From assembly GCA_012934845.2 (NCBI GenBank), contig WNNJ02002905.1, positions 1 through 64,000 of the forward strand: a stretch of 64,000 nt of DNA, read 5' to 3'. The stretch comes from Pomphorhynchus laevis. Lineage: Eukaryota > Acanthocephala > Palaeacanthocephala > Echinorhynchida > Pomphorhynchidae. The notes beneath the pieces were generated by a model that was not told the origin of the DNA, searched no databases, and saw only the letters and a program-made list of their open reading frames with translations. Below, in pieces: positions 5,801 to 45,130 of the stretch; position 1 is the stretch's first letter; each line of letters begins with the position of its first letter. Position numbers and translations under genes: made by a program.

Positions 5801-6411
5801 ATGGCCAAACTGATGATATCAGTTACCAATTGTTGGCTACTGATTAAAAGACATACGATTGAACGACTAAAAGTGTCAGGCGGTTCCACATCCAGTCGCG
5901 TGCTACTCTACACAATAATATCAATGTGTGTTCAATTATTGATCTCTTTAGCATTTGTAGTTACATTTTGCAACGATAGATTCCCTCATACTTACTACTA
6001 CGGTCGCCTGATGTACGGATCAATTTCGTTTTGTTTAAGTAGAGCATTTGTCCATCTAGTTCTAATCAATGTGGTTTGTTTTATACTCATCGATAGTAAT
6101 TGTTTTCGATTGCTATGGTACATGCTTACTCCACCTTTGACAGGAGGTAATACATATTATTTACAGAAAAGTATAAATCAGCACATTCTCCTGTATGCTA
6201 TGCTAACTTTAATTCTGAAGAGACGATCCGCAATATCAATAAAGCATATCAGCATTTTACCTGGAATAAGATTCACTTTAATTTCATTGCTAAAATCTGA
6301 TATAAAGTTCACGCTCTGCCCAACCTATCTTCGAGATATAGATAGTGTTACACTTACGTGCTTACTTACAGTAAGTGCTCTTAAGAACTCGATGACAAAC
6401 CAGATAAACAG
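5801..6411 (+). CDS. NOX: NADPH oxidase (gp91phox)-like protein, exon 1: transmembrane half
   Basis: This exon encodes residues 1-203 plus two bases of codon 204 of a predicted 541-aa protein. It aligns with the membrane half of NOX2. TM1 is at about residues 33-56, followed by FPHTYYYGRL where NOX2 has PPKFFYTRKL, and a second hydrophobic helix at about 83-97 (FVHLVLINVVCFIL where NOX2 has AACLNFNCMLILL). INQHILLYA matches the TM3 region around heme ligand His101. His128 is kept, but the partner His115 position is Arg142. The start is the first ATG of the open frame (5801). The end is set by the donor AACAG|GTTAGA at 6411/6412, which joins exon 2 in phase and keeps the loop before TM5 at the family length. 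Whether it is still membrane-inserted is inferred. Loss of heme ligands argues against electron transfer. Confidence 0.78.
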
Positions 6412-6473
6412 GTTAGAATCGTTTGCAATTAAAAATTTTATAATAAAATTTTATAAATTAATTTTGTTAAAAA

Positions 6474-6955
6474 AGATTTATTTTTACGTGGCAAATGCGT
6501 GCCGGTGCACGCAAACATGACCACAAAAAAGAACAAAAATCTAAATCTTAGATTTTTGTTCTAAGGTGGGTACGGAGGCGGTATTTGAATGTAATAAAGG
6601 AGGGAGGGGCGGACGTCGAGTGGGAGCTGATTCCAGGTGACTGGAGCGGCGACGAGGAAGGATCGAAGACCGTAGTTGTTGAGTAATTGGGAACGTAGAG
6701 TAAGAGGAAATGACGGGAACACAGTGATAGATAGGTGGGGCGAGTGTCGCCTAAGAAAAAAAAGTTGATGAACGATGGGGAGCCGACAGCGATGATATAA
6801 AAAGTTACGAGAAGGCTTAGTTGTATGCGAATGAGGATGGTGAGCCAGAACAGTTTGATAAGATGTGTGGGTGAAGTGATAGAGACGTAGGAGCACTCTA
6901 ACGGCTGAGTTGATTATGCATTGTCGAAGTAGGATGATGGATTTCAGGATTATGG
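6474..6955 (-). pseudogene. LINE A2 3' fragment
   Basis: - strand A2 thumb/C-terminal peptide (for example RRHSPHLS and WNQLPLDVR) plus the A-type 3' stem-loop around 6497-6514. Inside the 3' UTR a 15-base stretch is followed by its inverted copy (6531-6562, AGAACAAAAATCTAA and reverse complement). The 5' end breaks off in short direct repeats (GGATTATGGATTTTA type) at 6930-6990. The insertion lies about 60 bp inside the NOX intron. Confidence 0.8.
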
Positions 6956-6989
6956 ATTTTAGGATTATAGATTTTATGGATTCTATGGA

Positions 6990-7110
6990 TTTGCTTGCAT
7001 GATTTTAGAAGAAACAAATCATCGGCATGTATTTGATACCACTGCTATAATGCGCTAACAAGTATGCGTCAAATCAGAGATTTGATGCCTACTGAAATAG
7101 CTATTTCAGT
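6990..7110. repeat. Diverged P2-type terminal repeat
   Basis: GGCATGTATTTGATACC followed by CTGCTATAATG resembles the terminal repeat at 16600-16690 (GCATGTATTTGGTCC, CTGCTATGTTGG). It is only partly aligned. A short inverted repeat AAATCAGAGATTTGAT follows. Confidence 0.35.
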
Positions 7111-7344
7111 ATGAAAACCTATTTTTTTTTCTGAAATAGCATCTTCACAAGATATCGCATAATCACAATTTCAATTCATTCTAATTCTAAATTGTAATTT
7201 TCCAGTTCATAAAAATTCATAAAAAATCTTGACTTTTAAAATATCTGAATTATAGATCAATTAACTGAGGCTACATATTTTAAAAATGTAGCCTTTGAAT
7301 TTAATATATATAACATTTAAAATTATTATATATTTGTAGTATCA

Positions 7345-7745
7345 TGTTATGGATGCTTACTTATCTATTGAATATTTGCTAGATCACACAGTAAATTTCG
7401 CATTGAAAACCAGTTGCAGAATCCGTCTATTATGACCCATTTCTATACACCCTGACTATTAACGGCACCATTGCCACATCCGTGTTCGTTTCGCCCGCTT
7501 TCTGACACATATTGGTAGCCCCTGGCTCATAAGAAGACTGACTACCAACTAAGCTCCTTCCCGGGGCTACCAACATGTGACATAAAGCAGGCGAAACGAA
7601 AACGGCAGTGGCAATGGTGCCGTTAGTAGTCAACGTGTATGAGATTGGAAGTCATGTAGGAAGGATTTTGAAGCTGGTTTTCAACGCCAAAGTAACTTTG
7701 TGTGACCTAGCAACTATTCAATATATATTTTCATATCCATGTAAG
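7345..7745. mobile_element. Long foldback element with GAAACG in each arm
   Basis: Two imperfect inverted arms, about 7345-7524 and 7560-7740, surround a 35-base spacer. Examples: left GGCACCATTGCCAC pairs with right GTGGCAATGGTGCC, and left ATTGGTAGCCCC pairs with right GGGGCTACCAAC. Each arm reads GGCGAAACGAA or its complement near its inner third. No ORF explains it. The open frames seen here are symmetric by-products of the palindrome. It could be a MITE-like or PLE-derived non-autonomous element. Confidence 0.75.
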
Positions 7746-8389
7746 AATCGTCTAACGGGGTTTCTTGAAAACTTTTCCATATATTTGTAAAACTATTAGA
7801 ACCGGTAAAAAAGGATGTTTTTTAATTTAAAAAGGAAATTTATTTATCTTTCAGTGATAATATACACAATGTATGCAACTTTGATCAGGGCTCGTGATGC
7901 TGTCTATTGATCTTATTTGTTTGGTGCAAGAAATCGTTTTGAAAAATATTTATTTCACAAAATACTATGTAATGATTGGCTTTTAATCTAGAAATATTTT
8001 TTGGAGAAATCAAATAATTAAAAATAAATAATTTCACTCATATAAACAAATATTGCTTAAAATTTTCAGGTTTCGACAAGATTATTATTAAGAATATAAT
8101 TTCAAAAAACCAGATTGTTCTAAAGAGTACCAACGGTTTTTATTTTAATTCAAATATTTTAGCAAAATAGTAATTTAATTTCAAATTTACGACACATTTT
8201 CATTTTATAGCATGTGAATATTTTTACATTTTTTAATTCTACACATTGTAAATTGATCGTATACATATATTTATATTTAATTTAATATGAATATAAAATC
8301 ATATGTGCATTTTATATATTTAAAAATATTGAAACATTATCAGGAAGAAATTAAGCACATTTTTAAAAACTTGGTATAACCTTTGATCC
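7746..8389. other. AT-rich intronic sequence, nothing recognised
   Basis: No coding signature, repeat or element was found on either strand. Confidence 0.5.
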
Positions 8390-8835
8390 ATCCACCTAAA
8401 TGGGAAAGAGAGGGCAAAGTCTTTAAGATGCTAGACGTTATCCTATCGAAGCGCTGCCTATCGAAGCGTCAAACATCTTCTCAAAGACTTCGCCCCTTTA
8501 CCCCTTAAGGGGAAATATTTAAACACTATCGATCTCTCTTCCCCGTGAGAAGCTGGATTAATTGTTTATTTTGGCACTACTAAAATATACACTTTATCGA
8601 AGAGCTGAAAATTGAAGGGTCAAGCATATTTTCAAAGACTTTGCCCTCTTTCCCTTAAGGATATATTTAAACACTATCAATTCCCCCTCCTCACGGAAAG
8701 GGGGTTTAAGGGGATATTTTAGCAGTTCAAAAATAAACCCTTAATCAATCTTCCTATAGGGAAAGTGGATCGATAGTGTTAAATATTTCCTCCTAAGGGG
8801 AAAAGGAGGCGAAGTTTTTGAGAATATGAACCTGA
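8390..8835. repeat. Compound foldback of four related modules
   Basis: A module containing CAAAGACTTYGCCC, a pyrimidine-rich run, CCTTAAGG and TTTAAACACTATC occurs in + orientation at about 8478-8555 and 8625-8695. It occurs in - orientation at about 8400-8435 and 8760-8828. The alternating layout is that of a composite foldback or MITE cluster. No ORF is present. Confidence 0.65.
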
Positions 8836-9287
8836 CATATTGTATCGTTTACAAATGCCTTGACAACCTTACCTAAGTTCACAACCATTATTCTTCATCA
8901 TAAGCATTCTCCACATTCACACCTCAGATCAACTTTTGACATCAACTTTCCGCAAAAATTTATTTATTTGCTTTCACTCTTCACTCCAACTCTTACTGTA
9001 CAATATCCATATTTTATTTCCACTCACGTTTTCCAACTATTTTTAACTAAAAGATCATTTAATTATTAATTATTAATTAATAAAATTAGTTAAAACTAGT
9101 TAAAACTTTCTTGATAATAAACTACTTACAATAATAATATATTAAATATATTATTTAATATATGTTTATACTTAAACACACAATCTAATATTCATACAAG
9201 AGCTTAAACACTAAAACTACTTACACTGACCACAGAATATTAACATACACGACACACAAAGCGACACAAGACTTCAGGCAAATAACT
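8836..9287. other. AT-rich sequence before LINE D
   Basis: Short ATTAATTA and AAATATAT blocks. No coding or repeat identity was recognised. The last part may be the 5' UTR of LINE D. Confidence 0.4.
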
Positions 9288-9632
9288 ATGCCTCAAAGTA
9301 TTCCCTCTTCGACACAAAAATGTTGTACGTGCAATGGTGGGGCTGCCAAATGCAGATGTTGCCGATGTGCGAGAGCAAATAAACCATGCCTCAATTGCTC
9401 AGCTCCAAACTGCCAGCGCAAAACTCTATCTGATCAGGTATCTGGCAAACATAGCAACAACGGGGGCATACTAGTAATGGAACCTCAACTCTCTAACATA
9501 CGATCTGCACAAGATCCAGTAGCCATAACAGAGATAAACGTGTGCTATGTAGAAACTGGCGACCTCCCTGCTCATATAATGGATAACACAAATCCATGGA
9601 ACAATATCGATGTATACTTCAAAATAAACTAG
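9288..9632 (+). CDS. Cys-rich zinc-binding N-terminal part of LINE D (inferred)
   Basis: A 114-aa frame starting MPQSIPSS contains a dense Cys cluster at residues 12-45: CCTCNGG, KCRCCRCAR, PCLNCSAPNCQ. The spacing suggests a zinc-binding module. I recall similar Cys-rich modules upstream of the RT in invertebrate LINEs that carry a restriction-like endonuclease, and such an RT (LINE D) resumes at 10862 after the LINE C insertion. On that basis I infer this is the N-terminal part of LINE D. After residue 50 the sequence is not recognisable. It could instead be an unrelated small Cys-rich gene. Confidence 0.5.
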   Translation: MPQSIPSSTQKCCTCNGGAAKCRCCRCARANKPCLNCSAPNCQRKTLSDQVSGKHSNNGGILVMEPQLSNIRSAQDPVAITEINVCYVETGDLPAHIMDNTNPWNNIDVYFKIN

Positions 9633-9659
9633 AGAAATAAAATATACTATAAAATAAAA

Positions 9660-10800
9660 TAAACTATACTCCTCCTAAATAAACTAGAGAAAAGTGGCAT
9701 TCCATTCTTGCTTGTTAGATGGATTGAATCGTTTTTAAGCAATCGTAGTTATTGTGTGCATGTAGATAATTTTTACTCTTCTTCGCGGCCATGTAATATA
9801 GGGGTGCCTCAAGGTTCAGTATTGGGTCCATTGTTATTTAGTGTCTACATCAACGATATCCCGGAATTTATTGATTCTCAGATGCTTTTATATGCAGACG
9901 ATTTGAAAATCTGGCGGGCAATTCGTTCACCCAATGATATAGTCAAACTGCAACGGGATATCGATGAAGTCGAAAATTGGGCTCTGCTCAATAGGTTGAT
10001 TGTAAATATATCAAAATGCAAACATTTACGTGTTCGTGGCGGAAATGCTCAATCTTTAGTTAATTATAGCTTTCAAAGCAGTGATATAGAACGAGTGAAC
10101 AAATATAAGGACTTGGGAGTGTGGATAAACAGTGATTTGAGTACTGTCACACATACTGAACATGCTTGTTCAAATGCGTTGGGGATAATCGGTCAACTTC
10201 GACGCACTTTCATTGCACTTAATCAATTTGCCCTACGTCCGCTAATCTTTGCTCATGTGTTGAGCCGTCTTCTATATGCTGCACCGTGTGTGTATCCCCA
10301 AAATTCAAAAGAACATATTAGTTCAGAGAGGGTACTTCATAGAGCTACCAAGCTAGCACCGCAACTGAAATTTTTGTCGTACCCTGATCGATTAAAAGCA
10401 CTTAGACTTGAGACTGTCACTTGGACCCGCCGGTACATCGATATGAGTATGGTCTGGCAAATTCTTAATGATTTGGATCATCCACTTCGAGATTGTCTTC
10501 ATTTGCGCTCATCCAATATCCTCCGAGGCCATGGTTTAACCCTGCGACGTGAAAGGATAAGAAAATCACGAGCTGTCCAATTTGATCGGCGAGTTGTATC
10601 TCTGTGGAATAGGCTTGGAGAGTCAACAGTGTGCAGTAGCAATATCAACGAATTCAAAAAGAAATTACGGATGGAGAATGCCATGGGGAAAGCTGCTTTT
10701 CCGTATTTGTGATACTTTTATTATATTTTCTTTTTTTCTGCAGTGAACCAGCCAATTAAGCCATGCTTTTATGTGCTGTTGAAACATTAATAATAATAAT
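9660..10800 (+). mobile_element. LINE C, 5'-truncated, nested in LINE D
   Basis: The open frame 9708-10712 (334 aa) contains RT motif B (GVPQGSVLGPLLF), motif C (YADDLKIW) and the C-terminal RGHGLTLRRER and WNRLGES blocks. Motif A and everything upstream are lost by 5' truncation near 9689. The 3' UTR ends in (AAT)n at about 10785-10800. A 15-base block, AATAAACTAGAGAAA, occurs at 9626 and again at 9674 next to the 5' junction, so it may be a target-site or junction duplication. RT frame intact. Confidence 0.85.
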
Positions 10801-10861
10801 AAGAGTGTATATGCATGGTGCGAAATAGCTTTAAACTACCCAAGTGTAATGCTAGTTGAAA

Positions 10862-11045
10862 ATTTGTGCAAGTCTTGGCGAATCTTTATAGGGAAGCTGC
10901 ACAAACGGAAGATGATGAAAACAATGCATTAAAGCTTGCAACAATATTCAGTCAAACAATGCGCCAGGGAATTGATATCAGGAAAACAAGTGCCCTTCGT
11001 AAGACGCTAGAAAGACGAATTTCGATGTGGGAACGCCAATCTCCA
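10862..11045 (+). pseudogene. LINE D, second fragment
   Basis: Encodes LANLYREAAQTEDDENN, then ALKLATIFSQTMRQG and ALRKTLERRISMWERQ. This resembles the region before the RT in LINEs with a C-terminal restriction-like endonuclease. It is cut by the A2 insertion at 11046 and resumes in the RT at about 11826. Confidence 0.6.
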
Positions 11046-11830
11046 TCTCGTTCTAAACGCCGAAATGTCCAAAATAATGTGGATCCTTCCCCGTAAACCA
11101 AGCATATCTCCTCCCATTGTATCTTTTGCCTCATCGATCATCCCTGTAGTCCACAATCTCACTTTCTTAGGCTTCCATTTCGATGATCACCTTTCCCTTA
11201 AACCCTTCGTCCGTGACAAGGTCCGCTCGTCTAACTTAATTCTTCGTGACATCCGCCGTATCCGCCCCCTTATCGACTTCCGTTCTTGTATGTCTCTTCT
11301 TTCATCGCTTCTTTTCCCTGAAATCGATTACTGCCTTAGCCTTTTCGCCAATTCTCCAAAATCCATCATCCTACCCCTACAACGAATAATCAACTCCGCC
11401 GTTCGAGTGCTCTTTCGTCTCCGTCGCTTCGACCACACATCCACATATTTTGCCCAACTCTCCTGGCCCACCATCCACATCCGCATCAAACTTCGCCTTC
11501 TTCTCGTTACCTTTCGTCTCATCGCTGTCGACTCCCCATCGTTCATCAACCTTCCTTTCTTAGACGATACTCGCCCCACCTCGCTATCGCTTCGTTCCTG
11601 TCATACCCTCTTACTCCACGTTCCTAATTACTCCAACAACTACGGTCTCCGATCCTTCCTCGTCGCCGCCTCACTCGCCTGGAATCAACTCCCTCTCGAC
11701 GTCCGCCGCGCCCCTCCTTTATCACATTCAAACACCTCCTCCGTTCACACCTTCTCGACACCTGATTCACAGTCTTGTTTTGTTGTGGTCATGTAAGCGT
11801 GCGCTGGCACGCGTTTGCCACGTTAAAATA
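11046..11830 (+). mobile_element. LINE A2, 5'-truncated, nested in LINE D
   Basis: The open frame 11065-11796 gives the RT thumb and C-terminal part (SKIMWILPRKP, FVRDKVRSS, NLILRDIRRIRPL, AWNQLPLDVR). The A-type 3' stem-loop GCGTGCGCTGGCACGC lies at 11798-11813, followed by the GTTAAAATAAATCT tail. This is the best-preserved A2 3' end in the window. RT catalytic motifs lie upstream of the truncation and are missing. Confidence 0.88.
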
Positions 11831-13775
11831 AATCTCGAAAGTCGCAGGGTGTACACAATTATGCGCGGGACAGAGATGCGGTGCAGAAGCAGACATTCAT
11901 TCAATAACTTCTAATTTTGAGTCGTGTGAAAGGAATTGCGTTTTACAAATTGATGCATCAAACGCTTTTAATAATATTAACAGAAGTTTAGCATTACATA
12001 TTATGGAATACATATGTCCTGCGATGAAAACGGCCTTAACAAACTTCTAAAGAGAAAACCCAATTTTGGTGGTTGAAGAGGAATTCATCGAATCAAGGAA
12101 AGGGTTCATTCAAGGCGACACACTAGCAATGGCAGCCTTTGCTGCATCGTCCATCCCATTGATCCAAGATCTGGAGAAAAAATGTTTAACAGTAACGCAG
12201 AGATTGTATGCAGATGATGCCAACTGTGTTGGCACCGTACCTGAATTACTTGAAACATGGAATAATCTGATTACAACAGGTCCTAACTATGGCTTCTACG
12301 TCAACGAAGCAACATGCAACTTGCTTGTCCATCCGGACAATATGGAATATGCGAAGTTGATATTTCATAATGATATCAATATAACATGTGAGGGGATTAC
12401 CATGCTAGGAGCACCATGTGGCACGAAGGAGTTCACAAAGCGCTTCATCGAATCGAAGGTGGATAAGTTGATTTGGATGATTCAACATTTAGTTAAAATA
12501 GCCGACATCGATCCGCAAATAACACATTTCAGTTACTGCAATGGATTGCAACATAAGTGGCAATATATCACTCGAGTTTGTCAAATAGATTCAATGTTGT
12601 TCCAACCCTTATGGAATAGTATCGCACACGGATTCCTTCCGAAAATAATGGGTCGAAATACAAGTGGTCTTAACGCAAGTGTTTACGCTGCCAACCAAGC
12701 ACGGAGGTTTAGCAGTTAAGAACCCACTAGAATACGACCAAGAATATAGACGCTCAAGAGAGATGTGCAAACCACTATTGGAAGGAATGAACGGCATCGA
12801 ACTATTTGAAAAACAAATGAAAGTCGGGATTGCAATCCGAGAAGAGAAAAAAATATTAAACACCGAGAAGGAATTGAAACTAATGTTGTAATTGAGCGAA
12901 GAACAGAAATCAACAATAAGATATATAAGGGGAAAATGTGCATCACAATGGCTACGAGCGTATCCGTCTTCATCATTAAACCGTAGACTGTGTGCATTGG
13001 AATTCCACGATGTTCTTTGCGTACGATATGGATTACAAGCACAGGGTTGTCCAAAGAAATGTGTATGTGGTAGAGACTATACCACAACTCACGCATTATC
13101 ATGTAAACATGGAGGTACGAATATTCTACGACACGACCATATCAGAAATGTGCTAGCAAAAGAGCTTGAATGATCGTACAGAGAAGTCTCATTAGAACCT
13201 GTATTGCAAGAAGTAAGCGAAACGCACCGATTCGAAATATCGACAACAAGCAGGGATGTAAATGCGCGCTCAGGTATATCGTGTAGAGGTCTCTATGGTG
13301 GATTAATGGTCCGATCCTTTATGGAAATTTGTGTCTACAATCATTTGGCACCATCATATGCTAACCGAAATCCTCTTGAATCACACGCACACCACTCACA
13401 GCGGAAGCATGCCAAATATCAAGAGCGAATACATGATGTGAAGAGAGGGATATTCCTGCCGATGATCTTCTTAACAACTGGAGAAATCGACAGAGAAGCT
13501 TCACAAGTAATCAGCTGGATAGTAGCAAAAAATTCGATGCGAACAGGACGTCAATATTCTTATTGTGTTTCACATGTGTGCACGATATTCAGCATTGCAA
13601 TCGCTCGAACAGTCTCAATGTGCATTCGAGCAACTCGAATTCCTGCGTCTCAATTGTATCGCAACGACGATACAGAAGAAATGGCATAAAATAGAGGATC
13701 AACAATTACTCATAACTGACATTTATATGAATGCCTTATTTGCGGGAAGCAGTGGACTGTAAATTGTGTAAAAAG
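11831..13775 (+). pseudogene. LINE D, RT and restriction-like endonuclease
   Basis: The RT part reads LQIDASNAFNNINR (motif A) near 11945, GFIQGDTLAMAAFA (motif B) near 12105 and RLYADDANCVG (motif C, YADD) near 12205. Later frames carry ALEFHDVLCVRYG, the zinc motif CVCGRDYTTTHALSC (CxC, H, C) near 13057, and the endonuclease region ARSGISCRGLYGG, where family members have an LDI core. IFLPMIFLTTG follows. Frameshifts near 12715 and stops near 12890 and 13172 break the ORF, and the endonuclease aspartate appears changed. It is an RLE-bearing LINE (CRE/R4-like; clade uncertain), with copy D' at 36525-37010. Confidence 0.8.
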
Positions 13776-13859
13776 AAATTATTATAAAAAATATAAAAAA
13801 AAAGATATTTTCCACAAAAAGAGCTTGAACAGCTCGAACATATTGGTTTACAACAGGGA

Positions 13860-16090
13860 AAACAAAAGAAAAATTAAAAAATTAAAACTTAAATAAATAA
13901 CTGAAATGATGTGCAATTCAGGTATGACGACAGCGTATCCTGAGGTAATTTTGCAACCGTCGTTTAAAACTCCCCAGTTTAACATTTATCGTCACAGCAG
14001 GTAGAACATTCCAGATAGGTGCAATTCTATTATGGATTGTTGAAATTCGTTTATTGCAGGCTCGCCTTCTCTTCAACATATAGTTGTGACCACGTAGGCG
14101 ATCGTTGGTTCTTAGCTCAAACGTGTCCTTGCAACAGTGGTCTTGTGTGGTCAAGCACATCCACAAGAACATCATATCATTAAATTTTAGTTAAATTTTC
14201 ACTGGGAGAACGTCAAGACAGCGCAGGCGTTCCTCGTAAGGTAACGAGCGTATGGACCGCACCAAATGTGTCCACCGATGGAGAATGCCTTCGTAAGCAT
14301 CCAGCTCAAGCTAGAACTTAGGATGATCAACGACGGACCCATACAGCATGTGCGGGAGGATTGCGCATTGGTAAGAGGTACGCAATCCCACAGAATCAAG
14401 ATGACCGAACACCCTACGTACTAGACCGAGGAGGTGAACGCACTTGCTTACAACATGATCAACATGAGAGCGGGAACCTAAGTCACTAGTTACAATCACA
14501 CCCAAATCCGACATTTGCGAGACCTTTACAATCCGACAGCCATCAATTCGGTAGCTACTACTGAAGGTCCATTTTGCAATATGTAAGTGGAAACATTTCT
14601 CAGGGTTCACCTTGAGTCCGACAGCATTGCACCATCGAGAAACCATCTCGACATCTTTCTGGAGTATAGTTATATCACTGGGACTATTCAATGAACGCCA
14701 TATTTTGAGGTCGTCAGCGTACAGAATACTCTGTGAATTTATGACAGAAGGGAGTGAGTTGATGTAGACGTTAAAGAGTAGTAGGCTGATTACACACCCC
14801 TGAGGAACCCCTATAAACAAAAGACGCCATTTAGACAAGACACCGCCGATCTTGACTGCGAAGAAACGAGATGTTAGGAGTGAATGCATCCATCTATGGA
14901 TAGGACCTCTGATACCGTAGTGCCAAAGTGCTGAGAGTAGAATGTCATGTTTTACACAGTCGAAGGCTTTAGACAGATCAAAGAAAAGCATATCGAGTCC
15001 AACACCTGATCACATGAAATCGAACCAACTGTGTCTTGATGTTGCAAGATTGGTGATCGTAGATCTGTTCTTCCTAAAGCCATGTTGTACACCACTGAAT
15101 ATATTGAGACTTTCAAGGTGAAAACGGGGAGCTTTATCAATTAGTTTTTCGAGAACTTTACAAGCCACACAAGTGAGACTGATAGGTCGGTAATTATTCA
15201 CAGAAGTACGCTTGTCCTTCTTGAACAGTGGAAGAACCAAACACTTCCAGTCATTAGGAAGTATGCCGTTAGATATCGAGCACTAAAATAATTGAAAAAG
15301 CGATGTACATAAGATATCAGCTGATTCATAAAAAAGTAAGGGAGGCAGTCTGTCAGGACCAGCAGCAAGTGAATTCGGCAGCTGTCTCAGAACTTCCAAC
15401 ACGTCTCGCTTGATAAAATCGAATACGCATGATCTATGATTCGGGAGACCAGAGCACCGGGTATAGTTGAAAGACGAAGGGACCTCGGATGCGATATTTG
15501 AGTAGTGAATACTGAATTCCTCTGCTATGAGCTTCGGGTCATTCAGAATTGTCCCTTGTACGTTGGCTAGACATGGAATTATATTTCTGGGCTTTAGATG
15601 GGACCTGAGATGTTTAAAGAAACGGGATGAGTTGCCCACGCAACAGCGGCAGAGGGAATCAATGAAATGCTTGCGCTTGGATCTTTTTAACGATGTTGCA
15701 AAGTTTCTTGCCTGCTTGTACAGTCAGTAGGAACAATGGCCATTTTTAAATTCTTGGAATTTGTGGTCACGCAACTTTATGCCACTGTTGACCTGACGAT
15801 CAATCCAGGATGGACGAGAGGCAACACTAGAGGATCGTTTAACCGGGCTATGATAGCTAATGGCAGCCTGTAGAGTACACTTGAAAAAATCCCATGCAAA
15901 CTCAATTCCGTGTAGTGAGGGATCTGGCCATACTACTGGGAACATCGACTCTCTCAGTGTAGCATAGTCGGTTTTGTGCATATTTAAGGAGTGACATGAA
16001 GTGCGAGAACGACCCACTAGAGAAGACCGAATAGATAAAAGACGGTTATCGCTGCTTCCGAGAGGAGGAAAGCACTCCTTCAGTGAGCAA
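13860..16090 (-). pseudogene. LINE E, endonuclease end to C-terminus, frames broken
   Basis: In - strand order: the end of the endonuclease with SSDN near 16043 (normally SDH), GRSRTSCHSLN, RPSWIDRQVN, PNSLAAGPDRLPPLLFY (before RT), LFKKDKRTSVNNYRPISLT (RT motif 1), FFDLSKAFDCVKHDI (motif A), GVPQGCVISLLLF (motif B), YADDLKIWRSL (motif C), then NDRLRGHNYMLKRRR near the end. At least four frame changes separate these pieces. The closest relatives here are LINEs C and H. It meets LINE D tail to tail near 13780-13860. Confidence 0.85.
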
Positions 16091-16136
16091 ACCTAGAGTG
16101 AGTAAATTTCTTCGAAATTTACTCACTCTAGGTTTG
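16088..16136. repeat. Perfect foldback at the 5' junction of LINE E
   Basis: Two 23-base arms (16088-16110 and 16114-16136) are exact reverse complements, separated by three bases. The left arm adjoins LINE E sequence and the right arm adjoins AT-rich flank. Confidence 0.92.
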
Positions 16137-16500
16137 ATTATTATTTTATTTTTATTTATCTTCATTTTTAATGTATTTATAGTATAAAATACGTAGATTC
16201 AGTTGACTAATCCGGTTTGTTTAGTTGTGCGATCTTAATGAAGAAATTTATGGGCAGAATTTAAAATTGATAAACTGAGAATAATTTATAGTATTATTGA
16301 ATATAAATATTTTCACTATTGATATTTGTAAGAATGCATGTTGACATACTGCATGGCGACATCATTTGAATATATGAGCTTTAATATGTGTCCTTAGAAT
16401 TTAATATTTATAATATTTAATATTATAATATTAATATATAATTTAATTATTAATAATTTATTAAAAATCCATATACAAGTTCACTTGCTTTCTTCATTTT
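16137..16500. other. AT-rich sequence, nothing recognised
   Basis: Mostly ATTTAATATT-type low complexity. No ORF or repeat was identified. Confidence 0.5.
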
Positions 16501-16710
16501 GATATTATGTTTTCGATAATGATTTTTATTCAATAAGTGAAAAAGTGATAATAAATAACATACATTGTATGTTACAATAGATAATCAAATTGCATCAATA
16601 ATAATACGTCATTAGCATGTATTTGGTCCGCTGCTATGTTGGGTCCAGGAATAAAGGCCGAAACCTGATAGCATAGCAGTTTATCTTGATAATGCGAATA
16701 TCAAGATATT
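16500..16710 (+). repeat. P2 element terminal repeat, left arm
   Basis: Starts with a short piece of P2 RT coding (FYSISEKVI at about 16528), followed by a non-coding block with GCATGTATTTGGTCC, GCTGCTATGTTGGG and GGCCGAAACCTGATAGC. The reverse complement of almost the whole block lies at 17876-18080. A weaker copy is at 17430-17545. Confidence 0.75.
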
Positions 16711-16720
16711 CGCATTATAT
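16688..16720. repeat. Foldback at the 5' junction of an A2 fragment
   Basis: GATAATGCGAATATC is followed by AA and its reverse complement GATATTCGCATTAT. The left copy is native to the P2 flank (also present near 17884), so here the flank is what has been inverted and copied. Confidence 0.85.
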
Positions 16721-16865
16721 CCGCCTCGCTCTCTCCTTTATCACATTCAAATATCTCCTCCGTTCCCACCTTCTCTACACATGATTTAGACTTTTGTTTG
16801 CTTTTTTCTTCGTGGTCATGTCAGCGTGCGCCATCACGCATTTGTCACGTTAAAATAAATCTATT
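16720..16865 (+). mobile_element. LINE A2 3' end fragment (about 140 bp)
   Basis: Matches the last part of A2, from TCCGCCTCGCTC through the GTGGTCATGT box, the stem-loop GCGTGCGCCATCACGC and the GTTAAAATAAATCT tail. Severely 5'-truncated. Confidence 0.85.
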
Positions 16866-17429
16866 TTTAATGCCTTCATTGACATTTCCATCTTAAATGT
16901 CAATTTTAAATTTTAACTTTATAAATATACATTAAATAAAATCTTAAATATAAGATTATAACAATTAGGTTATAGAGTTAATCTATAATTAGATTATATT
17001 GTTAATCTTATTATTAACAATAAGATTATATAACAATTATTTAATTATTTATTATAAATTAAATAATATAATAATATTGAGATATAATATTATTATATTA
17101 TATTTATACTCAGTTAGCTAATCTGATTATTAAAAATAAAATTATTATTGTTTGAAATTTTTGAATTGGCAAACTAGATTACTTTATCACTATAATTTAT
17201 TAAGGTATTAATGTCAATATAAGTTAATATCATCTTAAACTATAAGGTAATATGCGACGGATAATATAATTTGATATTACTCTCCAAGATTTCCAGATTG
17301 ACAAGTTGTACATGCTTGTATTACATATCTAATCATATAAAAACAATCAATATTTATAATTATTTATCCTTATTTTTAATTTATTTATAGTTTAAGATAT
17401 TCAGCAAACTGATCTGATTTATTAATATG
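16866..17429. other. AT-rich sequence, nothing recognised
   Basis: TTAT/ATAA low complexity with short inverted ATTATATTAT blocks. No gene or element identified. Confidence 0.5.
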
Positions 17430-17545
17430 AACTGTTATGTCATCAGGTTTCGGTCCCTATTCCTCGACCCAAAATGGTAGCGGAGATAGATACATTCTAA
17501 TAACGTATTTCCTCATCTGAAATTTGATTATCTGGTTTATCTAAA
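17430..17545 (-). repeat. Diverged P2 terminal repeat
   Basis: CATCAGGTTTCGGTCCC, CTCGACCCAAAATGG and GAAATTTGATTATCTGG follow the order of the repeat at 17884-18000, with many substitutions. Confidence 0.6.
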
Positions 17546-17875
17546 GAAATAAAATGTATGTATATTCCTTGATATATATGGTGTGGATTATTCTCAAGAA
17601 AACAAAACTGTACTTGACTTAAAATAAGTCAAATTAAATAAATCACAATTTAACATTTAACTTAACCTTTGTGTTCACAGCTTCTTGATTAGCTACCCGA
17701 CGTGAACTATCAGACTAAAAGAAACGATCAATTGGACAGTAATGTGCTAATCTCAAACAATGGCATTTAACTTAGCATATATGTAACACTTATATCAAGT
17801 TAAAATAAAAAATTGAAATTTAAAATAAAAGTCAATTATGATGAATTGACTAATAAATGACAGTCCTTGTATCAG
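17546..17875. other. Unassigned AT-rich sequence
   Basis: Nothing recognised on either strand. Confidence 0.5.
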
Positions 17876-18080
17876 AATTCGCATTATCAAGATAAACTGC
17901 TATGCTATCAGATTTCGGCTTTTATTCCTGGACCCAACATAGCAGCGGACCAAATACATGCTAATGACGTATTATTATTGATGCAATTTGATTATCTGGT
18001 GTAACATATGTATGTTATTTTAAATAACATAATGTATGTTATTTATTATCACTTTTTCACTTATTGAATAAAAATTATTA
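17876..18080 (-). repeat. P2 terminal repeat, right arm
   Basis: Near-identical reverse complement of 16526-16706, for example TTCGCATTATCAAGAT, GATTTCGGCTTTTATTCC and ACATGCTAATGACG. It directly follows (in - strand sense) the second P2 RT fragment. Confidence 0.8.
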
Positions 18081-18480
18081 GAGTTAAATACACATATATC
18101 ATCAATGTATCGAAACATATATTTCATATATTTATATAATTTAGATTTATTTTTGAACATTTATTTATTTTTTAATATGAACATATTCATATTATATCGA
18201 GCTTAAACACAAGTTTAGATTTATTGTTGAATTTATGTTAGATAGACGTTATAGCTTATATAAAGTTAGGTAATTTTTCTAATGGATCGTTAATATCTGC
18301 TAAATCTAGATTTGTACAAAGCGTATTAAAATCGTATGTATTTATATTTTAAAAATTTATTCCTTTTGTCTGTTCTAAAAATTCTTTTGTAGAATTAATA
18401 CTGAAATAGTGTTTTATACCAGTATTAATTTCGATTACCTTGCAATATTTTTTAAAGTGTGCTTTAATTATTAAGTATTT
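18040..18480 (-). pseudogene. P2 PLE-like RT, fingers to YIDD (copy 2)
   Basis: - strand pieces INSTKEFLEQTKGINF and NTYDFNTLCTNLDL resemble the RT stretch ending in a YTNI-type motif A. They are followed near 18130 by KYMKYMFRYIDDICVF (motif C, YIDD). The frame ends at FYSISEK. Stops interrupt the middle. It lies head to tail with copy 1. Confidence 0.6.
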
Positions 18481-19060
18481 TCGCTAATGATTTTAAATTT
18501 AATTTTAATATTATTGTGTTGATTTATATATTTTGCTATTTTCTGTTTGATGATATTTTTATAGTAACCTAGTTTAAAATATGTATCTATTAAATTATTT
18601 AAATGATTTTGAAGAAAGCCAATATCATTTCATATTGTTGCGATTTTTAAAATTTCATTATTTGATGTTTTATATTTTATATTATATGGTATGCATGAAT
18701 GCTCATGCAAAAATATGTTTCTTGTAAATTTAAATATGCCATCTTTACGATATAAATTAAAAGTAGTTTAAATTGATGTTAATTTAATGTTCATATTTAG
18801 ATATACACCTTCTTTATCATTAATATTGGTTTTATTAAGAATGAGGCAACATGGATAAATTTGTTCACTAATTAAATAAAAATTGTTTGAGTTAAATACA
18901 CGTATATCATCAATATATCAAAACATATATTTCATATATTTATATTGTTTAGATTTAGTTTTTACACAGTTATGAACAAATTCATATTCTATAAAGCTTA
19001 AAAACAAGTCAGCTATAATTGGGCTAATATTATCTCTTTATCATCAATATTAAAATTAAT
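18481..19060 (-). pseudogene. P2 PLE-like RT, YIDD to C-terminus (copy 1)
   Basis: - strand reading gives F-stop-YIDDIRVFNSNNFY, then EQIYPCCLILNKTN, GVYLNMNI, FNLYRKDGIFKFTRNIF, NDIGFLQNHLNNLIDTY and LGYYKNIIKQKI. The order of an aspartate-rich RT core, a LYRKDG-like block and a helical C-terminal region matches an RT lineage widespread in invertebrates and distinct from the GIY-YIG Penelope at 30658. Three in-frame stops are present. A related fragment is at 29552-29824. Confidence 0.65.
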
Positions 19061-19095
19061 ATAAAAATAAAATCAAACAAGAAATCATCAATATG

Positions 19096-19132
19096 TTTAT
19101 ATATCTGAGATGTACATCTCAGATATATAAAT
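19096..19132. repeat. Perfect short palindrome
   Basis: TATATATCTGAGATG is followed at once by its reverse complement, with no spacer. It lies about 115 bp before NOX exon 2. Confidence 0.8.
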
Positions 19133-19247
19133 ATATAAATATAATATTATAAATATCTTTTAGAATTTTTCTAAATATTTGACAAAAACATTCGAAACAT
19201 TAACTTTTTTATTTATTTTTTATATCTAATATATTTTAAATTCTTAG

Positions 19248-20262
19248 ACCAAACCAGTACAGAAGACATCAATTTTTAAATAGACTGCTCAACATACTGA
19301 TTTACCTATCGTCTGCATTTTTATCGCAAGTCAAGCATTTATCCGGTCAAAATGCACCTGATGAAAACATAATTTGCAAAACTAATTATCAGCTATGGGG
19401 ACTAGAGCAATGTCCGGCACCAAAGATTTTATATTCCAGAGTTAATCCCATTGTTGTTTGGATATTATGTGCTTACTTGGTGGATCAACTTATTGGTTTA
19501 TTTTACAATTACATATGTATGTCTAAAGTCATTCATGTTGAATACTTGCCGGGTAGTCTGGTGAACTTTCAAATCAAAAATTCCAAGCCAAAACCAAACT
19601 ACGGTCAGTACGTTAGCTTAAAATGTTGGAACATTTCCGGTGTGATATGGTATCCCATCTATCCTACACACGTTTCGAATGAAACTCTAAATTTTACGCT
19701 TCATGCAAAAAACAGTTGGACATGTGAGTTTTACAGCTTATGTGTTGAGCCATCAACCATAAAGCTTTCGTGTTCTTTGCCAATTGGGCGTTCTATTCGT
19801 TTAAGTACGTCAATCAAACACTATATTTTTGTTATTCAAGGAGAACTGGGAGCTCTAAAGGCTTCAACACTTATTCAAGCAGAATATGCAAGAATCAAGC
19901 GGATATATTGGATTCATGAGAATATGAAAGATTGCAATGACGGTATAAATAACTGCTATACAAATAAGATACTGCCATCGCTTGAAAAATACGATATTGA
20001 GATATGTATTTATGTTTGCAGTGGATGGGACAGTCATACTGCACGAATGATTACGCTCGAAGCCAATGAAATATATGATCATTTAACGGGTTTGCATAGT
20101 AGGACTCGATACGGTAAACCTGATTTCGACAAAGAACTGAAATCAATAAGCAACGATAGCCAGCTAAAACAGTGTGGGATCATTACAGTAGAAGTTAGAG
20201 CTAATTTTATGATAGATATTTGTAAGGCATGCCGAAAATATAATTTACATATGTTAACTTAA
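19248..20262 (+). CDS. NOX: NADPH oxidase (gp91phox)-like protein, exon 2: FAD/NADPH-binding half
   Basis: Encodes residues 204-541 and ends at TAA (20260-20262). YRRHQF (208-213) aligns with WYTHHLF of NOX2. WGLEQCPAP aligns with WGKIKECPIP, and the next helix with the last TM. Then come the FAD-domain block GQYVSLKC (323-330) and a C-terminal block TGLHSRTRYGKPDFDKEL (484-501), which closely follows NOX ITGLKQKTLYGRPNWDNE. Catalytic signatures are changed. The heme ligand equivalent to His209 is Arg. FAD motif HPFT is YPIY (339-342). The glycine-rich NADPH loop GAGIGVTP is GELGALKA (402-409). The CGP motif near the end is VEV (518-520). Length (541 versus about 570 aa in NOX2) and uninterrupted frame argue against simple decay. 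I infer a non-catalytic oxidase-fold protein. Confidence 0.82.
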
Positions 20263-20333
20263 TTATCTTTAATTACCATACAACCGACCTTTCTGTTATT
20301 TTAAAAAGAGGACAACCTTTCTAACATGTACGA

Positions 20334-20339
20334 AATAAA
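20334..20339 (+). terminator. Poly(A) signal AATAAA of the NOX-like gene
   Basis: The first AATAAA downstream of the stop codon, 72 bases after it. Use is inferred. Confidence 0.5.
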
Positions 20340-20942
20340 ACAAATATTGGGGAATATATTTTATCTTTTACTGGTAATAAAATTTAGCAGCTCCGCCTAT
20401 TATAGTTTTTAATTTCCATACATTTTAGTATCGATGGTAATAAAATTTGGCAGCTCGGCCTATTTCATATATTTTAGTAACAAATTCAATTTTTGCCTTT
20501 TATTAAATTTTTTCTGTTTAACCAGAAATTTATTCATCTAATCTACACATCTTTAAAAAAATTCATATGATTTAAAAAACTGCTCAATTAACCAACTTTT
20601 ATCAGACATTTACATAATCTGCGAAAATTTCATTTCGTCGTAATTCCATTGTACATAAACTCCTAAGAATATGTTAATAATGGGTAATCCTCATGTATTT
20701 AAGACAGAGTGGGCGGTTTGTTTTAATCGCTTACTCGCTATTAAAACAACTCAATCTTATTTAAATTATGTCTTTATATTAGTCAAAATTGTTTTATTTA
20801 GAACGATATTACTATAAAACTATTAGTCTAGTAAAGTCCACAAACTTTATGGATGCTACGCCGGCCATCTTTACTATCCTTAGCGAGCTGTTTTTGGATC
20901 AGCTCTTATGGATTAGTTCAGATCTAGTCCTTTAGCCCTTTG
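20340..20942. other. 3' flank of the NOX-like gene with a short direct repeat
   Basis: GGTAATAAAATTT, then GCAGCTC and GCCTATT, occurs at about 20373 and again at about 20436. Nothing else recognised. Confidence 0.5.
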
Positions 20943-21206
20943 TTAGACGAAAGTAAACGGTTGTTTACAAACACGCACCCATCGCTGACACTTCGTGTTT
21001 GTAGATGAACGTACGCATTGCAAGGGTAACGATAATTCATCAGCGTTAAAGCCGAAACTAGTGTAGAGTGAATGCTCAAATAAAGATTGACACTTCATTA
21101 ATGAACGTTTATATACACCGTTCAAAGTGTAAAATAGGAAAAGATAACCGTCGCGGTAGATGTTATCATCGCAACTGCCAACAAGATTTGAAGATATTAA
21201 GTGCAA
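20943..21206 (-). CDS. Unidentified 87-codon frame
   Basis: A - strand frame with a mixed composition unlike the surrounding AT-rich DNA, four Cys in the second half, and peptides SLYTSFGFNADEL and KCQRWVRVCKQPF. Its start codon is uncertain, and GTATATAAACG inside it could equally be a TATA-like site. No family recognised. It may be a short exon, a remnant or chance. Confidence 0.2.
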   Translation of the reverse strand: MHLISSNLVGSCDDNIYRDGYLFLFYTLNGVYKRSLMKCQSLFEHSLYTSFGFNADELSLPLQCVRSSTNTKCQRWVRVCKQPFTFV

Positions 21207-21675: not shown

Positions 21676-24600
21676 AGGCTCAATGAACAAATGTTGTATT
21701 ATCAAACAACTCAATGATAAATGTTGTATTAGCAAAAGTTGCATTAGCAAAACGCTCAATGAACAAATTTTGCATTAGCAAAAGGTTCAATGAATAAATG
21801 TTGTTATAGCAAAACGCTCAATGAATAATCATTGCATTAGCACAAGACTCAATGAACAAATGTTGTATTAGCAAAACTCTCAATGAACAAATGTTGTATT
21901 GGCAAAAGGCCAAATGAATAATCATTGCATTAGCACAAGACTCAATGAACAAATGTTGTATTAGCAAAACTCTCAATGAACAAATGTTGTATTAGCAAAC
22001 AACTCAATGAATAAACGGTGTATTTGTAAAAGACGCAATGAATAAATGTTGTATTAGCAAAATGCTCAATGTTTAAACTGTTTATTGGTAAAATGCTCAA
22101 TGAATAAATGTTGTATTAGCAAAAGGGTCAATGAATAAATGTAGTATTAGCAAAACGCTCAATGAATAAACGGTGTATTATCAAACATTTCAATGAATGA
22201 ATTTTGTATTAGCAAAAGGCTCATGAATAAATGTTGTTATAGCAAACAAATCAATGAATAAACGTTGCATTAGCAAACAACTCAATGAATAAATTTTGTA
22301 TTTGCAAAAGGCTCAATGAATAAATGTTGTTATAGCAAAACGCTTTATTAATAATCATTGCATTAGCACAAGGCTCAATGAACAAATGTAGTATTAGCAA
22401 AACGCTCAATGAACAAATGTTGTATTAGCAAAACGCTCAATAAATAAACGTTGCATTAGCAAAAGACCAAATGAATAAATGTTGTATTATCAAAGGCTCA
22501 ATGAACAAATGTTGTTATAGCGAAACGCTCAATTTATAAACATTGCATTAGCACAAGGCTCAATGAACAAATGTAGTATTAGCAAAACGCTCAATGAACA
22601 AATGTTGTACTAGCAAAAGGCCAAATGAATAAATGTTGTATTAGCAAAAGGCCAAATGAATAAATGTTGTATTAGCAAAAGGCTCAAAGAATAAATGTTG
22701 TTATAGCAAAACGCTCAATTAATAATCATTGCGTTAGCACAAGGCTCAATGAACAAATGTAGTATTAGCAAAACGCTCAATGAACAAATGTTGTAATAGC
22801 AAAAGGCCAAATGAATAAATGTTGTATTAGCAAAAGGATCAATGAATAAATGTTGTATTAGCAAAAGGCTCAATGAATAAATGTTTTATTAGCAAAAGGC
22901 TCAATGAACACATGTTGTACTAGCAAAACGCTCAATGAATAATCATTGCATTAGCACAAGGCTCAATGAACAAATGTAGTATTAGCAAAACGCTCAATGA
23001 AAAAATGTTGTATTGGCAAAAGGCCAAATGAATAAATGTTGTATTAGCAAAAGGCTCAATGAATAAATGTTGTATTAGCAAAAGGCTCAATGAATAAATG
23101 TTGTTATAGCAAAACGCTCAATTAATAATCATTGCATTAGCACAAGGCTCAATGAACAAATGTAGTATTAGAAAAACGCTCAATAAACAAATGTTGTATT
23201 AGCAAAACGCCCAATAAATAAACGTTGCATTAGCAAAAGGCCGAATGAATAAATGTTGTATTAGCAAAAGGCTCAATGAATAAATGTTTTATTGGCAAAA
23301 GGCTCAATAAATAAATGTTGTTATAGCAAAACGCTCAATTAATAATCATTGCATTAGCACAAGGCTCAATGAACAAATGTAGTATTAGCAAAACGCTCAA
23401 TAAACAAATGTTGTATTAGCAAAACGCCCAATAAATAAACGTTGCATTAGCAAAAGGCCAAATGAATAAATGTTGTATTAGCAAAAGGCTCAATGAATAA
23501 ATGTTTTATTGGCAAAAGGCTCAATGAATAAATGTTGTTATAGCAAAACGCTCAATTAATAATCATTGCATTAGCACAAGGCTCAATGAACAAATGTAGT
23601 ATTAGCAAAACGCTCAATGAATAAATGTTGTATTAGCAAAATGCTCAATGAATAAACGTTGTATTTGCAAAAGGCTCAATGAACAAATGTAGTATTAGCA
23701 AAACGCTCAATGAACAAATGTTGTATTAGCAAAATGCTCAATGAATAAACGTTGTATTTGCAAAAGGCTCAATGAACAAATGTTGTATTAGCAAAAGGCT
23801 CAATGAATAAACGTTGCATTAGCAAAAGGCTCAATGAATAAACGTTGCATTAGCAAAAGGCTAAATGAATAAACGTGGCATTAGCAAAACGCTAAATGAA
23901 TAAATGTAGTATTAGCAAAACGCTCAATGAATAAATGTTGTATTAGCACAAGGCTCAATGAACAAATGTAGTATTAGTAAAACGCTCAATGAATAAACGG
24001 TGTATTATCAAACAACTCAATGAATGAATTTTGTATTAACAAAAGGCTCATGAATAAATGTTGTTATAGCAAACAACTCAATGAATAAACGTTGCATTAG
24101 CAAACAACTCAATGAATGTATTTTGTATTTGCCAAAGGCTCATGAATAAACGGTGTATTTGTAAAAGACTCAATGAATAAATGTTGTATTAGCAAAACGC
24201 TCAATGAATAAACGGTGTATTATCAAACAACTCAATGAATGAATTTTGTATTAGCAAAAGGCTCATAAATAAATGTTGTTATAGCAAACAACTCAATGAA
24301 TAAACGTTGCATTAGCAAACAACTCAATGAATAAACGTTGCATTAGCAAACAACTCAATGAATAAACGTTGCATTAGCAAAAGGATAAATGTATAATCAT
24401 TGCATTAGCAAAAGGCTAGATGAACAAATGTAGTATTAGCAAAACGCTCAATGAACAAATGTTGTATTAGCAAAATGCTCAATGAACAAATGTAGTATTA
24501 GCAAAACGCTCAATGAACAAATGTTGTATTAGCAAAATGCTCAATGAATAAACGTTGTATTTGCAAAAGGCTCAATGAACAAATGTTGTATTAGCAAAAG

Positions 24601-25418
24601 GCTCAATGAATAAACGTTGCATTAGCAAAAGGCTCAATGAATAAACGTTGCATTAGCAAAAGGCTAAATGAATAAACGTGGCATTAGCAAAACGCTAAAT
24701 GAATAAATGTAGTATTAGCAAAACGCTCAATGAATAAATGTTGTATTAGCACAAGGCTCAATGAACAAATGTAGTATTAGTAAAACGCTCAATGAATAAA
24801 CGGTGTATTATCAAACAACTCAATGAATGAATTTTGTATTAACAAAAGGCTCATGAATAAATGTTGTTATAGCAAACAACTCAATGAATAAACGTTGCAT
24901 TAGCAAACAACTCAATGAATGTATTTTGTATTTGCCAAAGGCTCATGAATAAACGGTGTATTTGTAAAAGACTCAATGAATAAATGTTGTATTAGTAAAA
25001 CGCTCAATGAATAAACGGTGTATTATCAAACAACTCAATGAATGAATTTTGTATTAGCAAAAGGCTCATGAATAAATGTTGTTATAGCAAACAACTCAAT
25101 GAATAAACGTTGCATTAGCAAACAACTCAATGAATAAACGTTGCATTAGCAAAAGGATAAATGAATAATCATTGCATTAGCAAAAGGCTAGATGAACAAA
25201 TGTAGTATTAGCAAAGGGCTCAATTAATAAATGTTGTATTAGCAAAATGCTCAATGAACAAATGTTGTATTAGCAAAACGCTCAATCAACAAATGTTGTA
25301 TAAGTAAAAGGCTCAATGAATAATGGTTTTATTAGCAAAAGGCCAAATGAATAAACGTTGCATTAGCAAAACGTTCAATGAACAAGTGTTGTATTAGCAA
25401 AATGCTCAATGAACAAAC
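21676..25418. repeat. 31-bp minisatellite array, about 120 copies, with higher-order periods
   Basis: The monomer is close to GCTCAATGAATAAATGTTG followed by TATTAGCAAAAS, 31 bp with 30-33 bp variants. Variants recur in order. A block marked by ATTAATAATCATTGC repeats at 22347, 22718, 23121, 23338 and 23555 (spacings 371, 403, 217 and 217, close to 12, 13, 7 and 7 monomers). A long block of about 660 bp repeats at an offset of 803 bp (23678 and 24481 onward, close to 26 monomers). No ORF crosses it. It sits between the converging 3' ends of the NOX-like and VAP genes. Confidence 0.95.
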
Positions 25419-25501: not shown

Positions 25502-25807
25502 TCATAGCCAATCAATTTGAAACACATCGTCTTCAATTCTAAACAGAAAGAGAACTTTAATGAAAATGAAGATTTTCGAGGACTTTACCATAATATTTAA
25601 GGCTGCTAAAATCTTATACAGCCCTAGTCCAGCAGTGAAGCTAACTGCTATCATGCAAATAATAAGCAAATAATTCAGATCCGCTCGATTTTCTGCACTC
25701 GACAATTCAGCATATTTATCATTATCCAGCTTATGTATAATAGGGTTTCCAACCGTAACAGACAAGGTATCAACATTTTCTGGTCTTATATTCTTCGTGT
25801 TCCTTTC
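25502..25807 (-). CDS. VAP: VAP exon 6: linker end and tail anchor
   Basis: Follows acceptor ACAAATAG. Encodes residues 231-331, with the hydrophobic helix YLLIICMIAVSFTAGLGLY and a second hydrophobic stretch just before the stop. Identity as the VAP C-terminus rests on phase, strand, position and tail-anchor character. The sequence itself is not conserved. Confidence 0.6.
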   Translation of the reverse strand, partial: ERNTKNIRPENVDTLSVTVGNPIIHKLDNDKYAELSSAENRADLNYLLIICMIAVSFTAGLGLYKILAALNIMVKSSKIFIFIKVLFLFRIEDDVFQIDWL

Positions 25808-45124: not shown

Positions 45125-45130
45125 CAATCC

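What the first reader, a model, noticed from the sequence alone, without database searches (positions are those of the whole stretch)
5801..20262. A pseudo-NADPH oxidase: fold and frame kept, catalytic residues lost
Two exons in matching phase give a 541-aa gp91phox-like protein. The loop between conserved segments aligns with NOX2 without gaps across the splice. Yet His115 and His209 equivalents are Arg, no His sits at the His222 position, HPFT is YPIY, the NADPH glycine loop is GELGALKA, and the C-terminal CGP is VEV. Decay would also have broken the frame, which it has not. This suggests selection for a non-enzymatic role such as scaffold, receptor or regulator. It may belong to an undescribed group of inactive oxidases.
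Basis: partly seen in the sequence, partly recalled or inferred. Interest (0 to 1): 0.88.

Follow-up and report, generated by a model that had tools for sequence, protein, structure and literature searches.

The report
Dead NADPH oxidase in thorny-headed worm
A parasitic thorny-headed worm carries one intact gene descended from superoxide-making enzymes in which most of the parts needed for the chemistry have been lost, so it may do some other, non-enzymatic job.

Summary
The window is from Pomphorhynchus laevis (Acanthocephala). Exon 2 is a clear NOX2 relative (PDB E 1.4e-13). Exon 1 is only weakly supported as homologous (12 of 1000 shuffles reach its score). The lost residues check out: 3 of 20 chosen haem, FAD and NADPH positions match human NOX2. 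The substitutions include H209R and H338Y, and H101Y in one register, all known disease mutations of NOX2. No exon supplying the missing ligands was found in the intron. The frame is intact: in a simulation, free drift long enough to lose these residues leaves about 31 stops, and none is present. Human NOX2 finds no other NOX in the draft genome. Searches for the ferric reductase domain and p22phox find nothing convincing. Best reading: a relic of a NOX2-like oxidase, enzymatically dead and kept for some time as a protein, perhaps as a membrane scaffold. Transcription, dN/dS, fold and orthologues could not be tested, so recent pseudogenisation and a lone-species oddity remain open. It is a plausible pseudoenzyme and a new variant of a known family, not yet a described group.

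The parts
5801..6411 (+). Exon 1: N-terminus and putative TM1-TM4 of the pseudo-NOX (residues 1-203 plus 2 bases)
   Evidence: frame and junction; same start and junction in GJ496_006256; one match in the genome; weak similarity to NOX2 36-120
6412..19247 (+). Intron of 12.8 kb holding reverse-transcriptase-like ORFs (identified by eye); no alternative NOX exon found
19248..20262 (+).
6194..6196 (+).
19282..19284 (+). Codon R216, aligned with haem ligand His209
19321..19323 (+). Codon L229, aligned with haem ligand His222
19651..19662 (+). YPIY in place of the FAD motif HPFT
19837..19851 (+). QGELG in place of the NADPH loop GAGIG
20188..20196 (+). VEV in place of the NADPH motif CGP
20832..20935 (+). 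Alternative third exon used in the deposited model (donor after 20221); window 20200-21000 has no second match in the genome
20334..20339 (+). AATAAA 72 bases after the exon 2 stop, a possible poly(A) signal for the two-exon model; the region is AT-rich and has further copies at 20376 and 20439

Best explanation
This is the only NOX-family gene detected in the draft genome of Pomphorhynchus laevis, a descendant of a NOX2-like (gp91phox-like) oxidase that can no longer pass electrons from NADPH through FAD and two haems. Shown: open frame, exon 2 homology, loss of most cofactor residues, no rescue exon and no second NOX found. Inferred: after the oxidase function was lost the protein was kept by selection as a six-helix membrane protein. 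Its extracellular loop E retains both cysteines, and its cytosolic domain keeps the outline of the NOX dehydrogenase. It would serve as a docking or scaffolding protein without making superoxide. The partner is unknown; p22phox is not an obvious one, as no p22phox gene was found and Arg80 of the B-loop is not kept in either alignment.
For: Same junction in the deposited protein. NOX2 similarity E 1.4e-13 by exon 2, against 0.0068 for NOX5 and 0.051 for DUOX1, and over NOX2 211-534 by tblastn. 3 of 20 cofactor positions kept, against 121 of 463 other aligned positions (Fisher p 0.43, so the cofactor sites have lost their usual privilege rather than being singled out). For scale, human NOX2 matches the DUOX1, NOX5 and bacterial relatives in the PDB at E 1e-55 or better, this protein far more weakly. 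Drift simulation: about 31 stops expected at 0.75 substitutions per site, none seen; the other two frames of the same strand carry 26 and 10 stops (exon 1) and 22 and 30 (exon 2). PMC1940245 (section 9 read): the four His are in all but two of 101 NOX/DUOX sequences, and H209R, H338Y and H101Y are chronic granulomatous disease mutations; here the aligned residues are R216, Y339 and, in one register, Y132. Loop E Cys244/Cys257 are kept as C247/C259. No other NOX: human NOX2 at E up to 10 hits only this exon; PF01794 best hit E 4.6; PF05038 none; the three PF08030 hits carry FAD_binding_6 and NAD_binding_1, as cytochrome b5 reductases do.
Against: No transcript, protein, orthologue or structure seen. 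H209R and H338Y lower or abolish NOX2 protein in patients, which speaks against a stably folded product. Hydropathy of TM4 and TM5 is weak (maxima 1.04 and 1.2 by Kyte-Doolittle). Codon usage of the two exons does not differ from non-coding DNA (31% and 41% of null stretches score as high). Exon 1 homology is marginal. Two C-termini are proposed and I see no resemblance of either to that of NOX2. The genome is a draft in which only 61% of conserved animal genes were recognised, so absence of other NOX genes is not proven.
Confidence: 0.57

Rival explanations
1. A young pseudogene: the gene lost its oxidase function, evolved fast under weak constraint, and has recently stopped being used; the frame is still open only because too little time has passed.
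For: Destabilising substitutions, weak TM4 and TM5 hydropathy, no codon-usage signal, a truncated second copy of exon 2 on contig C1218, and a genome paper that reports heavy gene loss (PMC7310846, section 18 read).
Against: Free drift of only 0.05 substitutions per site already leaves 4.4 stops on average, with 5 of 300 simulated genes stop-free. Under drift the cofactor losses need far more change than that, so most of them should have happened while the frame was being kept.
Confidence: 0.25
2. A strongly diverged but still redox-active protein, for instance with one relocated haem between H128 (TM3) and H211 (TM5), each about one helical turn from the canonical inner-haem positions, fed by another reductase.
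For: H128 lies 4 residues before Y132, and H211 lies 5 residues before R216; that His101 and His209 hold the inner haem is recalled. Short bacterial proteins related to YedZ and STEAP are described as binding one haem (PMC3591440, passages seen).
Against: Charged residues K140-R142 fall inside TM3; the FAD and NADPH motifs are lost, so it is unlikely to use NADPH itself; the TM3 register is uncertain.
Confidence: 0.07
3. Gene-model or assembly artefact: exon 1 belongs to another gene, or sequencing error created the substitutions.
For: Exon 1 similarity is weak; the deposited gene model may be ab initio; the C1218 copy shows that the assembly is complicated here.
Against: Exon 2 alone carries most of the losses in one 340-codon frame. 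C1218 repeats its first half with no substitution in 545 aligned bases, although read correction could force that. Sequencing error would be expected to break frames rather than replace motif after motif.
Confidence: 0.11

Closest known systems
NOX2 / gp91phox (cytochrome b-245 heavy chain)
   Same: Size, no EF-hand match, loop E with paired cysteines and the W-G...C-P segment, GQY and W-P of the FAD domain, TGL...T.YG.P segment of the NADPH domain
   Different: At most one of four haem His; HPFT, GAGIG, DGP and CGP lost; loop between TM3 and TM4 shortened; C-terminus unlike NOX2. NOX1, NOX3 and NOX4 are not among the PDB hits, so which of NOX1-4 is nearest was not tested
NOX5 and DUOX
   Same: Share the NOX core
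   Different: Much weaker match (NOX5 E 0.0068, DUOX1 E 0.051); no EF-hand or peroxidase match in the model
DUOX isologs with Leu at His115 (X. tropicalis Duox2, dog Duox1; PMC1940245 section 9)
   Same: Reported NOX-family proteins with a lost haem ligand, possibly inactive; the authors also name mis-sequencing as a possible cause of exceptions
   Different: One haem ligand lost there, with the paper still crediting them with FAD and NADPH sites; here most sites are lost
STEAP / YedZ (ferric reductase domain proteins)
   Same: Superfamily relatives in which a canonical haem His is replaced by Arg (PMC3591440 abstract)
   Different: They work as reductases; this protein matches NOX2, and Pfam PF01794 does not recognise it
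Pseudoenzymes in general (iRhoms, pseudokinases; recalled, not looked up)
   Same: Frame kept, catalytic residues lost
   Different: No function shown here

Membership tests
NOX family (by descent) | Significant sequence similarity to NOX proteins | tested here: met
   Exon 2: NOX2 E 1.4e-13 in the PDB set; 0 of 300 shuffles
NOX family (by descent) | Pfam PF01794, PF08022 and PF08030 above cut-off | tested here: not met
   Only PF08030 appears, below cut-off: 16.4 of 22.2 bits for exon 2, 15.6 for the joined model
Functional NADPH oxidase | Four haem-ligating His (101, 115, 209, 222) | tested here: not met
Functional NADPH oxidase | FAD motif HPFT and Arg356 | tested here: not met
   YPIY and Lys; W361-T362 are kept
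Functional NADPH oxidase | NADPH motifs GAGIG..P and CGP | tested here: not met
   QGELG..K and VEV
NOX1-4 group | Six TM helices, no EF hands | tested here: inconclusive
   TM1, TM2 and TM6 clear, TM3 fair, TM4 and TM5 weak by hydropathy; no EF-hand match in the model
NOX1-4 group | p22phox partner | tested here: inconclusive
   No PF05038 match, but p22phox is small and multi-exon (recalled), so sensitivity is limited
Pseudoenzyme | Expressed, selected and inactive | not testable with these tools
   No RNA-seq, orthologues or assay
Pseudoenzyme | Frame kept beyond free drift | tested here: met
   (simulation of base substitutions only, no indels)

The most novel reading that the evidence does not exclude
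Acanthocephalans have lost superoxide-producing NOX enzymes, yet keep the NOX2 body as a cofactor-free membrane scaffold or receptor: an undescribed clade of pseudo-NOX proteins.
Probability: 0.3. Interest if true: 0.68.

Novelty: new variant of a known kind. Interest (0 to 1): 0.47.

Why it matters
If confirmed, it would be a NOX-family protein kept after loss of most of the electron path, in an animal with no other detected NOX. That would make it possible to ask what NOX proteins do apart from making superoxide. It would also add an animal apparently without a working NOX to the record. My literature searches for an inactive NOX or for NADPH oxidase in acanthocephalans (listings seen, open-licence papers only) showed no description of either. 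Term searches in three acanthocephalan or syndermatan papers found no NADPH oxidase, and the listing gives no occurrence of the phrase in the genome paper PMC7310846.

Tried and rejected
Orthologue searches: the search for homologous proteins with the 541-aa model, with P0001 240-530 and with a P0001+NOX2 profile returned only P0001 itself (1 of 4317, 1 of 406 and 1 of 4396 candidates). That the NOX2-containing profile found no NOX at all means this database or its word filter does not reach them, so nothing follows about orthologues. Two scans of bacterial and archaeal genomes, with human NOX2 and with a NOX2-based alignment, and one of viral contigs with P0001 gave no relatives.

Considered as a second NOX and rejected: nine PF08022 matches, two over the cut-off. 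On their matching strand all nine share one repeated peptide around SHP(F/L)SI, so they are copies of a repeat; 4 of 9 carry stops inside the match. One search had read the six minus-strand copies on the wrong strand; one search corrects it. Three PF08030 matches carry FAD_binding_6 and NAD_binding_1 above cut-off, as cytochrome b5 reductases do.

Codon-usage test: no signal, on a training set of only three ORFs. A first version scored exon 2 in a wrong frame and is replaced. DuoxA (PF10204) did not complete, so DUOX absence rests.

The 20 cofactor positions (4 haem His, HPFT, Arg356, Asp388-Gly389-Pro390, Gly408/410/412, Pro415, Arg446, Cys537-Gly538-Pro539) are my choice from recall of NOX2. 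They were fixed, before the count, but after I had read the finding and seen the alignment, so they are not blind. The count depends on one BLOSUM62 alignment.
Full report
What the window is. It lies in contig C1804 of a 249-Mb genome. The protein search points to Pomphorhynchus laevis, a thorny-headed worm of fish, because 98% of the 541-aa model is covered at 100% identity by the deposited hypothetical protein GJ496_006256 (P0001, 562 aa). The genome paper is PMC7310846 (abstract, sections 8, 12 and 18 and some passages seen). The parts I read do not say how the deposited gene models were made, so the annotation is not independent proof of transcription.

The observation. Exons 5801-6411 and 19248-20262 join in phase (611 + 1015 bases) with GT and AG borders and give 541 codons and a stop. 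The deposited protein uses the same junction, but leaves exon 2 after 20221 at a GTAAGG donor and ends with a third exon starting at 20832, so it differs from residue 529 on. Window 20200-21000 has no second match in the genome. AATAAA at 20334 would suit the two-exon form. Which end is real is open.

Is it a NOX? Exon 2 is. Against PDB sequences it finds NOX2 at E 1.4e-13, a bacterial 'putative ferric reductase' (recalled as the dehydrogenase part of the pneumococcal NOX) at 7.7e-6, NOX5 at 0.0068 and DUOX1 at 0.051. In tblastn the match runs over NOX2 211-534 in one frame, and none of 300 full or 300 local shuffles reaches its score. Exon 1 is weak: no PDB match up to E 10 and no Pfam match up to E 1. 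Its local similarity to NOX2 36-120 is reached by 12 of 1000 full and 25 of 1000 local shuffles, and its end-to-end score by 247 and 211 of 1000. Its place, order and phase make it the likely N-terminal half, with NOX2 Arg54 kept as R81.

What is lost. In a BLOSUM62 alignment, His101, 115, 209 and 222 face Y132, a gap, R216 and L229. HPFT is YPIY, Arg356 is K358, the DGP of the pyrophosphate loop is I-G-R, GAGIG is QGELG, the following Pro is K408, and CGP is VEV. Of 20 positions, 3 match NOX2 (Pro339, Gly389, Gly412); of 463 other aligned positions, 121 do. The difference is not significant (p 0.43): the cofactor sites are not lost more than the rest, they have merely lost the near-total conservation they have in other NOX proteins, where the four His are present in all but two of 101 sequences (PMC1940245 section 9). 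[quoted passage not shown] This gene has Arg, Tyr and, in one register, Tyr at the aligned places. This cuts both ways: it confirms loss of function and warns that the fold may be unstable.

What is kept. Loop E cysteines 244 and 257 (C247, C259) with the W-G and C-P around them, GQY and W-P of the FAD domain, W361-T362, and the segment TGL...T.YG.P. Gly322 is kept as G323, while Arg80 faces L109 in one alignment and T114 in the other. In PMC1940245 mutation of either residue stopped NOX2 from binding p22phox.

Could an alternative exon restore the ligands? tblastn of NOX2 against the whole window up to E 20 gives nothing usable between the exons. One stretch at 10205-10330 resembles NOX2 61-102 at E 0.12, but holds stops.

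Decay or retention? I simulated free drift of a NOX2-length gene at the base composition of the intron, substitutions only. To lose most of the 20 positions about 0.75 to 1 substitution per site is needed, which brings 31 to 33 stops in 541 codons; 0 of 300 genes stayed open. At 0.05 substitutions per site 5 of 300 stayed open. The observed frame has none, while the other forward frames have 26 and 10 stops (exon 1) and 22 and 30 (exon 2). So the frame was kept while most of the residues changed. This does not show that it is kept now, and codon usage gives no support (31% and 41% of null stretches score as high).

Is it alone? Human NOX2 against the whole genome at E up to 10 hits only this exon 2, in two stretches. 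That stretches at 28 and 33% identity were found is a positive control: a normal NOX should have been seen if assembled. PF01794 gives one match at E 4.6, PF05038 none, PF08022 nine matches that are copies of one repeat, and PF08030 three cytochrome b5 reductase-like genes. The DuoxA search did not complete. The paper reports 61% of conserved animal genes recognised in the draft genome and 77% with the transcriptome added, so absence is likely, not proven.

Second copy. Contig C1218 carries the first half of exon 2 and intron flank: 545 aligned bases without a substitution and with two gaps in the stretch before the splice acceptor, and 9 substitutions in 704 bases of flank. It lacks window 17424-19155 and ends in rearranged pieces. 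Whether it is a duplicate, a haplotype or a misassembly is open.

Reading. The best-supported account is a NOX2-like oxidase that lost its chemistry while its frame was kept, in an animal in which no other NOX was found. I commit to a non-enzymatic membrane scaffold as the likeliest role (inferred), with a young pseudogene as the main rival. The listings of my searches showed no inactive NOX of this kind and no report on NOX in acanthocephalans; the library holds open-licence papers only.

Noticed in passing
21734-25417: Array of about 119 copies of a 31-base tandem repeat, 81% matches, starting 1.5 kb downstream of the exon 2 stop.
   Followed up: no
43061-46471: LTR-type retroelement ORFs: aspartyl protease, reverse transcriptase and RNase H, then integrase in a second frame.
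   Followed up: no
30881-32263, 60609-62675: Reverse transcriptase ORFs, the second with an endonuclease domain, as in non-LTR elements.
   Followed up: no
25505-25807 and 26858-27217, strand -: Two open stretches without Pfam matches; the first has a possible TM segment by eye.
   Followed up: partly
G000:C1218:63611-64179: Truncated near-identical copy of the first half of exon 2, followed by rearranged pieces and lacking a 1.7-kb stretch of the intron.
   Followed up: partly
G000:C2122:139013-160855: Two cytochrome b5 reductase-like genes about 19 kb apart, both with FAD_binding_6 and NAD_binding_1.
   Followed up: partly
L013-L021: Nine copies of a repeat whose translation around SHPFSI matches the FAD_binding_8 profile, two of them over its cut-off; a likely false positive in annotation.
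   Followed up: partly
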